Below are positions 10,322 to 19,038 of a stretch of DNA of 38,572 nt, piece by piece. This DNA is from a virus. Made by a program: the position numbers and the translations under genes. Every line of letters starts with the position of its first letter. The stretch's first letter is position 1. The stretch is from IMG/VR virus record IMGVR_UViG_3300027747_001139, positions 1 through 38,572 of that record, one strand, 5' to 3'. The notes under the pieces are model-generated. The model ran no database searches, was not told the origin of the DNA, and saw only the letters and a program-made list of their open reading frames with translations.

Positions 10322-10732
10322 TTAGAGACTTGGTCTTGGACGTGGTCTCGGTGTATCGGTTGTGGTTGGTGTAGGATCTGCGCTTGGTGTTGGGATTGGG
10401 TCTGGCATTGGTAAGCTAGATGTTGCTGCCATTGCTGGTGGTGTATAAGGTACTGGTGTTGTATTGCTTGCTGCGCCAGCTACCTTTTCCTGAGTGCGAC
10501 CCCATGCTGCAATACCTAGTACTGCGCCCATGGCCAAGTGAAACAATCCAGCACCCTGAAGTGTAAGAGGATTCCACTGAGTCACTGGTTGTTTTAACAT
10601 TGCTTGCAGTAGTGCCCATGCAACAGGGAATAAAACCATGTCGCAAAAACAAACAACCATATACATCCAACCCATGGCTGGACGCCATTTCTTTTGCATC
10701 CAGTCTTCGTCTTTTTTAACTTCTTCTGTCAT
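10322..10732 (-). CDS. 3TM-type holin (GTA holin family-like)
   Basis: A 136-residue membrane protein. The motif KKWRPAMGWMYMVVCFCDMV followed by a hydrophobic helix, then QWNPLTLQGAGLFHLAMGAVLGIAAWGRT, matches the holin_3TM family known from gene transfer agents and environmental phages. The C-terminal 50 residues are Pro/Thr-rich with a PRPRPRPSL end. Holins permeabilise the inner membrane to free endolysin. AAGGAAG lies 6 nt before the ATG. It sits between gp54 and gp16, away from the hydrolase at 699. Confidence 0.75.
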   Translation of the reverse strand: MTEEVKKDEDWMQKKWRPAMGWMYMVVCFCDMVLFPVAWALLQAMLKQPVTQWNPLTLQGAGLFHLAMGAVLGIAAWGRTQEKVAGAASNTTPVPYTPPAMAATSSLPMPDPIPTPSADPTPTTTDTPRPRPRPSL

Positions 10733-12136: not shown

Positions 12137-12147
12137 CTATTTATTTG
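12137..12147 (-). promoter_or_regulatory. late promoter-like box at gene start
   Basis: On the minus strand CAAATAAATAG ends 4 nt before the ATG at 12132. If it works like T4 TATAAATA, transcription would start at or beside the ATG. The AT-rich end of gp4 could produce this by chance. Confidence 0.35.
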
Positions 12148-12578
12148 ATTCCTAGATGGTGTTCTGTAAGAATCTTGAATTCCCATCCACGATCTTTTGC
12201 ATATTCCGTTGCAGCTTTCCACTTAGCCTCGTTCTTGCCCCATGTCATTACTTCTGTGATATAACGCTGTGTAACTCTGCTTGGTGGGATAGGTGGGCGA
12301 GTCTGAGAATCTGGTTTGATTTCAACCAGATATGTGGCTAAATTGCCTTCTTTATTACGCACCTGTATCTGAAAGTCTACGAAATAACGATGAATTCTAT
12401 TGTCGGTAGGACAAACGTACGGAATTACAGTCTCCTCAGACTTCCACTTTACAACATTTGGGTTGCGATCACACCATGTGGCAAACTTTGTTTCCCATGA
12501 AGAACGCATTATAATGTTAGTTGGATCCCCAGAATACTTCTCAGGTTTGGTTGGAACAAATTTTCTTTTATGATACAT
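12141..12578 (-). CDS. 4: gp4-like head completion protein
   Basis: A 145-residue protein (T4 gp4 is 150), needed to finish DNA-filled heads before tail joining. The pattern matches gp4: MYHKRKFVPTKPEKYSGDPT, NIIMRSSWETKFATWCDRNP, VVKWKSEETVIPYVCPTDNR, HRYFVDFQIQVR, YLVEIKP and FKILTEHHLG. It contains a nuclease-like array (SWE, ...VDF...VEIKP), consistent with the endonuclease-like fold proposed for the family. ATG 12578 is chosen over longer in-frame starts that run into gp48. No good ribosome site precedes it. Confidence 0.9.
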   Translation of the reverse strand: MYHKRKFVPTKPEKYSGDPTNIIMRSSWETKFATWCDRNPNVVKWKSEETVIPYVCPTDNRIHRYFVDFQIQVRNKEGNLATYLVEIKPDSQTRPPIPPSRVTQRYITEVMTWGKNEAKWKAATEYAKDRGWEFKILTEHHLGIK

Positions 12579-12592
12579 GGCTAATTTGGCGA

Positions 12593-12603
12593 ATAAATAA
12601 TAG
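12593..12603 (+). promoter_or_regulatory. late promoter-like box for gp48 operon
   Basis: ATAAATAATAG lies 28 nt before the gp48 ATG, close to T4 TATAAATA. It forms an 8-bp inverted repeat (TAAATAAT/ATTATTTA) with the minus-strand box at 12613. Confidence 0.65.
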
Positions 12604-12612
12604 ACTACCCCT

Positions 12613-12623
12613 CCATTATTTAG
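12613..12623 (-). promoter_or_regulatory. late promoter-like box for gp4 operon
   Basis: Read on the minus strand as CTAAATAATGG, it lies 35 nt before the gp4 ATG and points left. It faces the + strand box 9 bp away. Confidence 0.6.
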
Positions 12624-12630
12624 AGAAAAC

Positions 12631-13842
12631 ATGGCAGAATTCGACGCACTTTCAAACGTAGATCCCAATGGATTTTTCACTGGCATAAGCGATCCCGCAC
12701 CCAACGTCGCTGATACACCAGAAGGCATTCGCCCACCGATATCATCTACCAAAGCCAGCAATAAGTACTCTGTTGGTGTAAGAAAATTCCCAAGTAATGT
12801 TGAAAGCATTGAGATGCAGAATTATATTAAATTCTACATCAACGTACAGTCTGATTCTAAAATTGCCAGAGATAACTCTGAGGAGATGGCTCTGGTTCAG
12901 CCAGATCGTTCAGCCATGAATAGTTTAGTGGGTAAAACAACAAGTTCTACTGCATATGCAGCTGCTGCAGCAGCACAGGGTGCTGTAGTTGGATTCATTG
13001 GAGGAATAGCTTCTGGCGCAACCAGTGGTAAAGATGCTGTCGGTGCTATTGGTGGTGCAATCAGTGGTGGTGCAAAAGGTCTTCTTGGTGGTGCGCTAGT
13101 TGGTGGAGGTGCTGCTGCGGTTCAAACAACTGTACTAGAATCAGCTGGTATTAAATTTGGTGCACCAGCCAAACGTGTAAAAGAAGCTATAGTCCTCTAT
13201 ACTCCGCAACAACTTAGTGTTCGTTACGGTATGCAGTGGTCTGAAGAAGATGTGGGTATCGCTGCTGCTCTAGCAACCAATCCCGAACTAGCAAATCAGT
13301 TAAAAGCTGCTGGTGAATCTATGGCAGCAGGTAACGTAAAAGATGGTGCAGTACAAGGTGGCGCTGGGCTTGCCAATGCAGCAAAGGGTGCTATATCCTC
13401 AGAAATTTTAAAGGGCAATGCTGGTCTCTCAGCAATGACTAGATCTGCAGGCAACCCAAGAAAAGAACAGATCTTTAAAGGTGTAGACTATCGTAGGTTT
13501 ACCTTTGATTATCAATTTGCTCCAAGAGATGCTGCTGAAGCACAGGCTGCGTTAAACATTATCTGGTTGTTTAAATATCACATGCATCCAGAGTTTAAAG
13601 ATGCCAACAACTTTGTTTATGTATACCCATCAGAATTTGACATCGAATATTTTATCGGTGAAAGACAGAACAGCAGTTTAAACAAAATTTCATCCTGCGT
13701 ACTTACAGAGATGAACGTAAACTACTCACCGAATGGTGTGTTTACTACATTCCCAGACGGAACACCAACGCAGATTAACGTAACTCTTAACTTCGTTGAA
13801 CTAGAGACACTAACCAAAGAACGTATCGAGGCAGGTCTATAA
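12631..13842 (+). CDS. 48: gp48-like baseplate tail-tube cap protein
   Basis: A 403-residue homologue of T4 gp48 (364 aa), the ring that joins baseplate hub to tail tube. Seen: QNYIKFYINVQSDSKIARDN, LYTPQQLSVRYGMQWSEED, KGVDYRRFTFDYQFAPRDAA, FKYHMHPEF, VYPSEFDIEYF and LTEMNVNYSPNGVFTTFPDG. The C-terminal part has the tail-tube pattern. Residues about 108-170 are an Ala/Gly-rich hydrophobic insertion (AAAAAAQGAVVGFIGGIASG...). It leads the late hub operon behind the box at 12593. The following gene starts in its stop codon. Confidence 0.88.
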   Translation: MAEFDALSNVDPNGFFTGISDPAPNVADTPEGIRPPISSTKASNKYSVGVRKFPSNVESIEMQNYIKFYINVQSDSKIARDNSEEMALVQPDRSAMNSLVGKTTSSTAYAAAAAAQGAVVGFIGGIASGATSGKDAVGAIGGAISGGAKGLLGGALVGGGAAAVQTTVLESAGIKFGAPAKRVKEAIVLYTPQQLSVRYGMQWSEEDVGIAAALATNPELANQLKAAGESMAAGNVKDGAVQGGAGLANAAKGAISSEILKGNAGLSAMTRSAGNPRKEQIFKGVDYRRFTFDYQFAPRDAAEAQAALNIIWLFKYHMHPEFKDANNFVYVYPSEFDIEYFIGERQNSSLNKISSCVLTEMNVNYSPNGVFTTFPDGTPTQINVTLNFVELETLTKERIEAGL

Positions 13843-18474: not shown

Positions 18475-19038
18475 ATGACAATTAGAGTTACGCAATCCAA
18501 TGAGATCGGCATTCCCAGTGCTCCAGCTGGTGACCAGTATGGATCTGGGGATGAAGCGCAGTTACAATTTTATTTAAAATCTGTATATGAAGGAACGTCA
18601 TTTTCCGTGGATTTAACTTTTGATGGTGTTTATATTGATATCGCAGAAGAAAAAACTTACTCGCCAGCAACAAACGTAACATTTACCGCACCAAGCACTG
18701 GCATCGTTATCACAAAGTTATCCAACAGTTCTGTTAGAGTCACTGGTCCATATTCCAACCCATTTCCAAATACGTTTTATCGATTTAAGATGGCTGATTA
18801 CACTACGAAAATTCTTCCTGCCAGCACTACTGAACATTGGATCGGTTTGGTAGAATACAACCCACCAAGCCCCACTTACATAGAAAAGACATTTGATCTT
18901 GCAGTGACTATTCCTGCTGATCCAGTTTTGGGTGGAAACCCAACTACTGAAACTATTACTATGCACCAGTGGGTTTACTGGACATATTCCAGCGCAAGAG
19001 ATTCTATCAGAAGTCTTGCCGCACGAGGAGAAAAATAA
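18475..19038 (+). CDS. hypothetical virion protein between spike and PAAR tip
   Basis: A 187-residue, beta-rich protein (MTIRVTQSNEIGIPSAPAGD...). No Cys, few Lys, many Thr/Ser/Pro, as in structural proteins. It ends RDSIRSLAARGEK, and its last codons carry the GAGGAG ribosome site of the PAAR gene. No convincing ribosome site precedes its own ATG. The short gap before it contains TCAAGTTT twice. Position between gp5 and gp5.4 homologues suggests a baseplate or spike role. I recognise no family. Confidence 0.75.
   Translation: MTIRVTQSNEIGIPSAPAGDQYGSGDEAQLQFYLKSVYEGTSFSVDLTFDGVYIDIAEEKTYSPATNVTFTAPSTGIVITKLSNSSVRVTGPYSNPFPNTFYRFKMADYTTKILPASTTEHWIGLVEYNPPSPTYIEKTFDLAVTIPADPVLGGNPTTETITMHQWVYWTYSSARDSIRSLAARGEK

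What the first reader, a model, noticed from the sequence alone, without database searches (positions are those of the whole stretch)
12593..12623. Two late-promoter boxes face each other 9 bp apart between gp4 and gp48
ATAAATAATAG on the + strand (12593-12603) and CTAAATAATGG on the - strand (12613-12623) form an inverted repeat (TAAATAAT/ATTATTTA). Each points toward the other, so both transcription starts would fall in the same ~10 bp. Polymerases could not open both at once, which would couple the output of the left hub/packaging operon and the right baseplate operon as a toggle or fixed-ratio device.
Basis: partly seen in the sequence, partly recalled or inferred. Interest (0 to 1): 0.75.

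Follow-up and report, generated by a model that had tools for sequence, protein, structure and literature searches.

The report
Facing late promoters beside phage gp4
Two late-gene start signals that point at each other sit in the 52-base gap between two oppositely read phage genes; the same layout occurs in phage T4 and many of its relatives, and it most likely reflects two ordinary promoters packed into a tight gap rather than a purpose-built switch.

Summary
ATAAATAATAG (12593-12603, +) and CTAAATAATGG (12613-12623, -) face each other in the 52-bp spacer between divergent gp4 (ATG 12578, -) and gp48 (ATG 12631, +). Shuffled windows never give such a pair. It is a conserved feature of the gp4 junction. 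All 80 metagenomic relatives read carry boxes in both orientations near gp4, and 42 of 60 lineages have a facing pair (0.19 expected). T4 has TATAAATA-7 bp-TATTTATA between gene 4 and gene 53. Both boxes stay when gp48, gp53 or another gene is the partner; the second is missing in the two phages read where gp4 has no divergent partner. The toggle/fixed-ratio reading is not supported. The box-to-box gap varies from 6 to 28 bp and flips to back-to-back when the spacer exceeds about 65 bp or leaders are about 0 nt. What stays constant is the distance from each box to its own start codon (gp4 side 35 +/- 5 bp, the usual T4 late spacing). Best reading: two independent gp55-type late promoters interleaved by packing, with predicted starts at 12605 (+) and 12611 (-). 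Steric competition is a likely side effect, not shown to be a device. No RNA 5' ends are available.

The parts
12593..12603 (+). Late box (AATAAATA type, core TAAATA 12594-12599) for gp48, 37 bp from T of the core to the gp48 ATG
   Evidence: matches NATAAATA of cyanophage S-PM2 (PMC2984593)
12613..12623 (-). Late box (TCTAAATA type, core TAAATA 12622-12617) for gp4, 44 bp from T of the core to the gp4 ATG
   Evidence: matches the CTAAATA late box of phage Aeh1 (PMC1524935)
12605..12605 (+). Predicted start of the gp48 transcript (26-nt leader)
   Evidence: inference, box T + 11. The offset agrees with the sharp 11-bp box-to-ATG peak in HTVC008M
12611..12611 (-). Predicted start of the gp4 transcript (33-nt leader); the two RNAs would overlap by 7 nt
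   Evidence: inference
12141..12578 (-). gp4 head closure/completion protein, 145 aa, first gene of the left operon (then DNA end protector, tail tube, holin, small terminase, baseplate hub, tape measure)
12631..13842 (+). gp48 baseplate tail tube cap, 403 aa, first gene of the right operon (then baseplate wedge/gp53 type, tail protein, hub-lysozyme type)

Best explanation
Two independent T4-type (gp55-recognised) late promoters, one for each of two divergent late operons, are interleaved in a 52-bp spacer. Each box is held at roughly the standard late-leader distance from its own start codon (about 30-45 bp). Because the spacer is shorter than the two leaders plus boxes, each box has to lie beyond the other's start point, so the cores face each other: gap = f + r - D - 12, where f and r are the box-to-ATG distances and D the spacer. 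Both operons would be switched on together late in infection on the many genome copies. Polymerases on one copy must take turns, so some competition is expected as a by-product of the packing. Shown here: boxes, positions, conservation, geometry, and gp55 in long relatives. Inferred: promoter activity, start points, exclusion and its lack of a dedicated regulatory role.
For: 1) Boxes in both orientations lie near gp4 in all 80 closest relatives; the gp4 box is 27-46 bp from its ATG in 78 of 80. 2) 42 of 60 lineages have a facing pair against 0.19 in shuffles. 3) T4 gene 4/53 has TATAAATA-GATAATA-TATTTATA in a 47-bp spacer; facing pairs also occur in Straboviridae VR5 and the RB49-like SAP, Acinetobacter phage AB1I1L, Stenotrophomonas BUCT608 and cyanophages P-SSM5, S-BM3, S-H25, ACG-2014d/j. 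4) In 27 lineages the gp4 box-to-ATG distance has SD 4.6, against 7.9 if gap and flank varied independently (permutation p = 0.00015); gap and flank correlate at rho -0.66; coefficient of variation is 0.31 for the gap, 0.13 and 0.16 for the two leaders. 5) Of the 32 perfect T4 TATAAATA boxes, the 25 with an ORF start within 90 bp lie a median 32 bp upstream of it (IQR 26-34), so the pair's 32 and 34 bp are ordinary. 6) Long spacers (80-97 bp in L014 type; 68 bp in Vibrio D482) and near-zero leaders (HTVC008M, D = 26) give back-to-back boxes, as the formula predicts. 7) Where gp4 has no divergent partner (44RR, Campylobacter CPX) only the gp4 box is found. 8) No pairing beyond the TAAATA core across 35 lineages, so the repeat follows from two boxes. 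9) The late sigma gp55 (PHROG 234) is found in all five relatives longer than 120 kb, E <= 7.2e-59.
Against: No RNA 5' ends for this phage, and none for gp4/53 that I could read; promoter function rests on motif, position and conservation. The gp48-side leader constraint is weaker (permutation p = 0.14). The 17-bp gap is kept almost throughout the window's clade, even in L012 where the sequence between the boxes differs, although common descent may explain that. In the L014-type group a second gp48-direction box facing the gp4 box persists although the leader rule does not need it. A few distant divergent junctions lack one or both recognisable boxes. Lineages are not fully independent and some neighbour start codons (GTG/TTG) are uncertain.
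Confidence: 0.8

Rival explanations
1. An evolved competition device: facing promoters exclude each other's polymerase, so head-completion/packaging and baseplate operons are expressed in a set ratio or with reduced noise.
For: Starts are predicted 6 bp apart here and 4 bp apart in T4, so polymerase footprints must clash. The layout persists across T4, cyanophage and freshwater lineages with different partner genes. E. coli bidirectional promoters compete once one direction is strongly activated, and this lowers noise (PMC12825309).
Against: The gap ranges 6-28 bp and flips to back-to-back in related lineages; leader length, not gap, is the constrained quantity on the gp4 side. E. coli bidirectional promoters did not compete at basal activity (PMC12825309). 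Many replicating genome copies would average out a toggle (inference).
Confidence: 0.1
2. The inverted repeat itself is the functional unit: an RNA hairpin that hides ribosome sites in read-through transcripts (as in T4 gene e), or a palindromic protein site.
For: Read-through RNAs fold slightly better than RNAs starting at the predicted late start (-6.1 vs -3.3 kcal/mol for gp48, -9.7 vs -3.7 for gp4). T4 gene e uses such a hairpin (PMC3014915).
Against: No complementarity beyond the shared TAAATA core in 35 lineages (observed equals shuffled at all five flanking positions). In T4 the Shine-Dalgarno sequence is outside the stem. Loop length varies widely, and back-to-back relatives keep the boxes but not this palindrome.
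Confidence: 0.04
3. Only one of the two boxes is an active promoter; the other is a conserved but weak or silent match in AT-rich DNA.
For: Promoter activity was not measured, and TAAATA alone is at chance frequency in the window.
Against: Both box cores are invariant in the window's clade while flanking bases vary, and each tracks its own gene: in 44RR and CPX, where the divergent partner is absent, so is the second box.
Confidence: 0.06

Closest known systems
T4 late promoters of gene 4 and gene 53 (AF158101 77338-77384)
   Same: Orthologous gp4 junction, two perfect late boxes facing each other in a 47-bp spacer, 34 and 32 bp from their start codons.
   Different: Gap 7 bp instead of 17, so T4's predicted bubbles overlap and its RNAs do not; the partner gene is 53, not 48; boxes are TATAAATA rather than AATAAATA/TCTAAATA.
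Cyanophage late promoters (NATAAATA in S-PM2, Syn9) and the CTAAATA late box of Aeh1
   Same: Same -10-like core and position upstream of late structural genes (PMC2984593, PMC1524935).
   Different: In the parts I read, boxes are treated one by one; I found no description of facing pairs or of their conservation.
Bidirectional promoters of E. coli and Salmonella (Warman, Grainger and colleagues)
   Same: Two opposite starts so close that polymerases exclude each other (PMC12825309).
   Different: There one pseudo-symmetric -10 element is shared and divergent starts lie 18 (or 10, 23) bp apart, outside or within it. Here there are two separate -10 boxes with both starts between them.
Convergent promoters with transcriptional interference (e.g. 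phage 186 pR/pL)
   Same: Promoter cores point at each other.
   Different: In classical cases long convergent RNAs collide (general knowledge); here the RNAs leave in opposite directions with an overlap of 0 nt in T4 and 7 nt in the window, because each start is almost level with the other.

Membership tests
T4-type gp55-dependent late promoter | TATAAATA-like -10 element (NATAAATA or CTAAATA accepted) | tested here: met
   AATAAATA (+) and TCTAAATA (-)
T4-type gp55-dependent late promoter | Box at the usual distance upstream of a late gene start | tested here: met
   37 and 44 bp; T4 late boxes median 32, S-H25 mostly 27-33, other promoter-like window boxes about 31-46
T4-type gp55-dependent late promoter | RNA 5' end about 12 nt downstream of the box start, late in infection | not testable with these tools
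   No transcript data for this uncultured phage; the Syn9 transcriptome paper is not held
T4-type gp55-dependent late promoter | Phage encodes gp55 (with gp33 and gp45) | tested here: inconclusive
   No gp55 match in the window, which is a fragment; gp55 in all five relatives >120 kb; gp45 only by sub-threshold matches in four; gp33 not searched
Bidirectional promoter (shared symmetric -10) | One -10 element used from both strands | tested here: not met
   Two separate cores 17 bp apart; no extra symmetry beyond the core
Fixed-geometry coupling device | Conserved spacing between the two promoters | tested here: not met
   Gap 6-28 bp and order flips among relatives
Fixed-geometry coupling device | Output of one promoter depends on the other | not testable with these tools
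   Needs in vitro or in vivo transcription
T4 gene e-type RNA hairpin | Ribosome site inside a conserved stem formed only in read-through RNA | tested here: not met
   T4 Shine-Dalgarno outside the stem; no pairing beyond the promoter core

The most novel reading that the evidence does not exclude
T4-like phages have kept, since before T4 and cyanophages diverged, a pair of late promoters whose start points coincide so that polymerases exclude each other, and this competition is selected to balance head-completion/packaging against baseplate synthesis.
Probability: 0.1. Interest if true: 0.65.

Novelty: new variant of a known kind. Interest (0 to 1): 0.4.

Why it matters
The individual boxes are textbook T4-type late promoters, but I found no published description of this facing layout at the gp4 junction or of its spread across T4, cyanophages and environmental relatives. 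Because T4 itself has one of the tightest versions (P4/P53), the question whether such promoters compete can be tested in an existing purified system. The work also gives a simple rule (leader length versus spacer length) that predicts whether divergent late promoters face each other or stand back to back.

Tried and rejected
(b) Genome-wide counts of facing pairs in 12 T4-like phages do not exceed reversed-pattern controls, so the layout is special to certain junctions, not a genome-wide excess. (c) A first control using ATAAAT...ATTTAT overlaps the real boxes and was replaced by shuffles. (d) RNA hairpin or palindromic operator: disfavoured by absence of co-variation. (e) DNA-level blastn around the site found only a short gp4 stretch of Rhizobium phage AF3. 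(f) The Syn9 transcriptome paper, which may hold mapped 5' ends, is not in the library; searches for papers on divergent or facing late promoters found nothing on this layout.

Full report
OBSERVATION. The core hexamer TAAATA is at chance frequency in the window (35 seen, 34 expected), but the facing pair TAAATAAT-N-ATTATTTA occurs once and in none of 100 shuffles. The 52-bp spacer separates gp4 (145 aa, PHROG 218 head closure; ATG at 12578 on -) and gp48 (403 aa, PHROG 230 baseplate tail tube cap; ATG at 12631 on +). The left operon continues with a DNA end protector, tail tube, holin, small terminase, baseplate hub and tape-measure proteins, the right one with baseplate and tail proteins.

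CONSERVATION. I fetched gp4 loci from IMG/VR with five different gp4 queries and from cultured phages. All 80 nearest relatives carry boxes in both orientations upstream of gp4, and in 78 the gp4 box is 27-46 bp from the gp4 ATG (exceptions L025, with the box 12 bp away, and L069, whose boxes lie further up). In the window's own clade (L001-L013) both cores are invariant although gp48 falls to 61% identity. After clustering gp4 proteins at 85% identity, 42 of 60 lineages have a facing pair; 200 rounds of dinucleotide shuffling of the same stretches give 0.19 on average and at most 2. T4 has the pair at the orthologous junction: gene 4 and gene 53 are 47 bp apart and the spacer holds TATAAATA-GATAATA-TATTTATA. 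My count of 32 perfect TATAAATA sites in T4 equals the number in the review by Geiduschek and Kassavetis (PMC2988020). Facing pairs also occur in VR5, the RB49-like phage SAP, Acinetobacter phage AB1I1L, Stenotrophomonas phage BUCT608, and cyanophages P-SSM5, S-BM3, S-H25, ACG-2014d and ACG-2014j. The partner gene differs (48, 53 or a hypothetical gene). In 44RR and Campylobacter phage CPX, where gp4 has no divergent partner, only the gp4 box is found. P-TIM40 and S-SZBM1, whose gp4 and gp48 starts overlap by 2 bp, have no recognisable TAAATA upstream of gp4, and a Kuttervirus and phage Nando have only the partner's box.

GEOMETRY. Let D be the spacer, f and r the distances from each box to its own start codon; then the gap between cores is f + r - D - 12. 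Across 42 lineages the gap ranges from 6 to 28. In a reduced set of 27 lineages the gap has coefficient of variation 0.31, f 0.13 and r 0.16. The gap and the gp4-side flank are negatively correlated (rho -0.66), and f has SD 4.6 against 7.9 when they are permuted (p = 0.00015); for r the effect is weak (p = 0.14). So on the gp4 side the leader length, not the gap, is held. In T4, the 25 perfect boxes with an ORF start within 90 bp lie at a median of 32 bp (IQR 26-34), and the gene 4 and 53 boxes at 32 and 34 bp are ordinary. T4 has a second facing pair with both ORFs at normal distance (112023/112040; 34 and 33 bp) and one overlapping back-to-back pair (116455/116456; 27 and 23 bp). When D is 80-97 (L014 type) or 68 (Vibrio D482), boxes stand back to back. 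In HTVC008M, whose boxes at this junction lie 11 bp before the start codons, they are also back to back in a 26-bp spacer. The formula accounts for all of these.

START POINTS. The T4 box covers -13 to -6 (PMC1524935), so +1 is 11 bases after the T of TAAATA. Here that gives 12605 (+) and 12611 (-): leaders of 26 and 33 nt and a 7-nt RNA overlap. The open bubble in the T4 complex is -12 to +2 (PMC7892883), which gives 12593-12606 and 12610-12623, not overlapping; in T4 the two bubbles would overlap by about 7 bp. In both cases polymerase footprints must clash (inference from enzyme size).

RIVALS. A hairpin or palindromic operator is disfavoured: across 35 lineages the bases flanking the two cores pair no more often than shuffled partners at five positions, and in T4 the Shine-Dalgarno sequence is outside the stem. 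A designed toggle or fixed-ratio device would be expected to hold the gap; it is not held. Competition as a side effect remains likely: E. coli bidirectional promoters compete only when one direction is strongly activated (PMC12825309), and late promoters are strongly activated late in infection (general knowledge). The L014-type group keeps an extra gp48-direction box facing the gp4 box although the leader rule does not need it; this is the one observation that leans towards a role for the facing layout.

MACHINERY. No gp55 match was found in the window, which is a fragment. Five relatives longer than 120 kb all encode gp55 (PHROG 234, E <= 7.2e-59); the sliding clamp gives only sub-threshold matches in four; gp33 was not searched. 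Whether the promoters fire is not shown.

LIMITS. No mapped RNA ends; start codons of some neighbours are uncertain (GTG/TTG); lineages are not fully independent and no tree-based test was run; literature search was limited to open papers.

Noticed in passing
Pelagibacter phage HTVC008M (KC465899; L598-L605), e.g. 18922-18945; also L517-L541 and gp4 of L544-L558: T4-type late boxes often sit exactly 11 bp before the ATG (12 of 50 boxes; no other distance has more than 3; most read TAAATAGTNNNATG), which puts the start codon at the predicted +1: predicted leaderless late mRNAs. T4 and S-H25 peak at about 30 bp instead. A pelagimyophage survey reports that late promoters could not be predicted in these phages (PMC7029224), which this placement may explain.
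   Followed up: partly
L014-L017, L019-L024, L026-L028, L030, L031, L034-L036, L046, L048, L050, L078 upstream of gp4: These relatives have an 80-97 bp spacer with one gp4 box and up to three gp48-direction boxes: one back to back with the gp4 box at normal leader distance, one facing it about 8-10 bp away, one overlapping the gp4 start codon (TATTTATG). The facing one is conserved although not needed for leader length.
   Followed up: partly
T4 AF158101 112023-112040: A second facing pair (TATAAATATAGATATATTTATT), with ORFs 34 and 33 bp away, at another divergent T4 junction.
   Followed up: no
T4 AF158101 about 116441-116461: Two perfect TATAAATA boxes overlapping on opposite strands (TATTTATAAATA), a shared-core bidirectional late promoter.
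   Followed up: no
window 12601-12616 (-): The region between the boxes (ATGGAGGRGTAG on the gp4 strand) is nearly invariant in most of the window's clade but replaced in L012 with the 17-bp gap unchanged; it holds a Shine-Dalgarno-like GGAGG about 30 nt before the gp4 ATG and a 3-codon ATG-GAG-GGG-TAG frame.
   Followed up: no
window 10322-10732 (-): A holin-like gene (PHROG 3427, E 2e-9) lies inside the packaging/tail operon, next to the small terminase gene.
   Followed up: no
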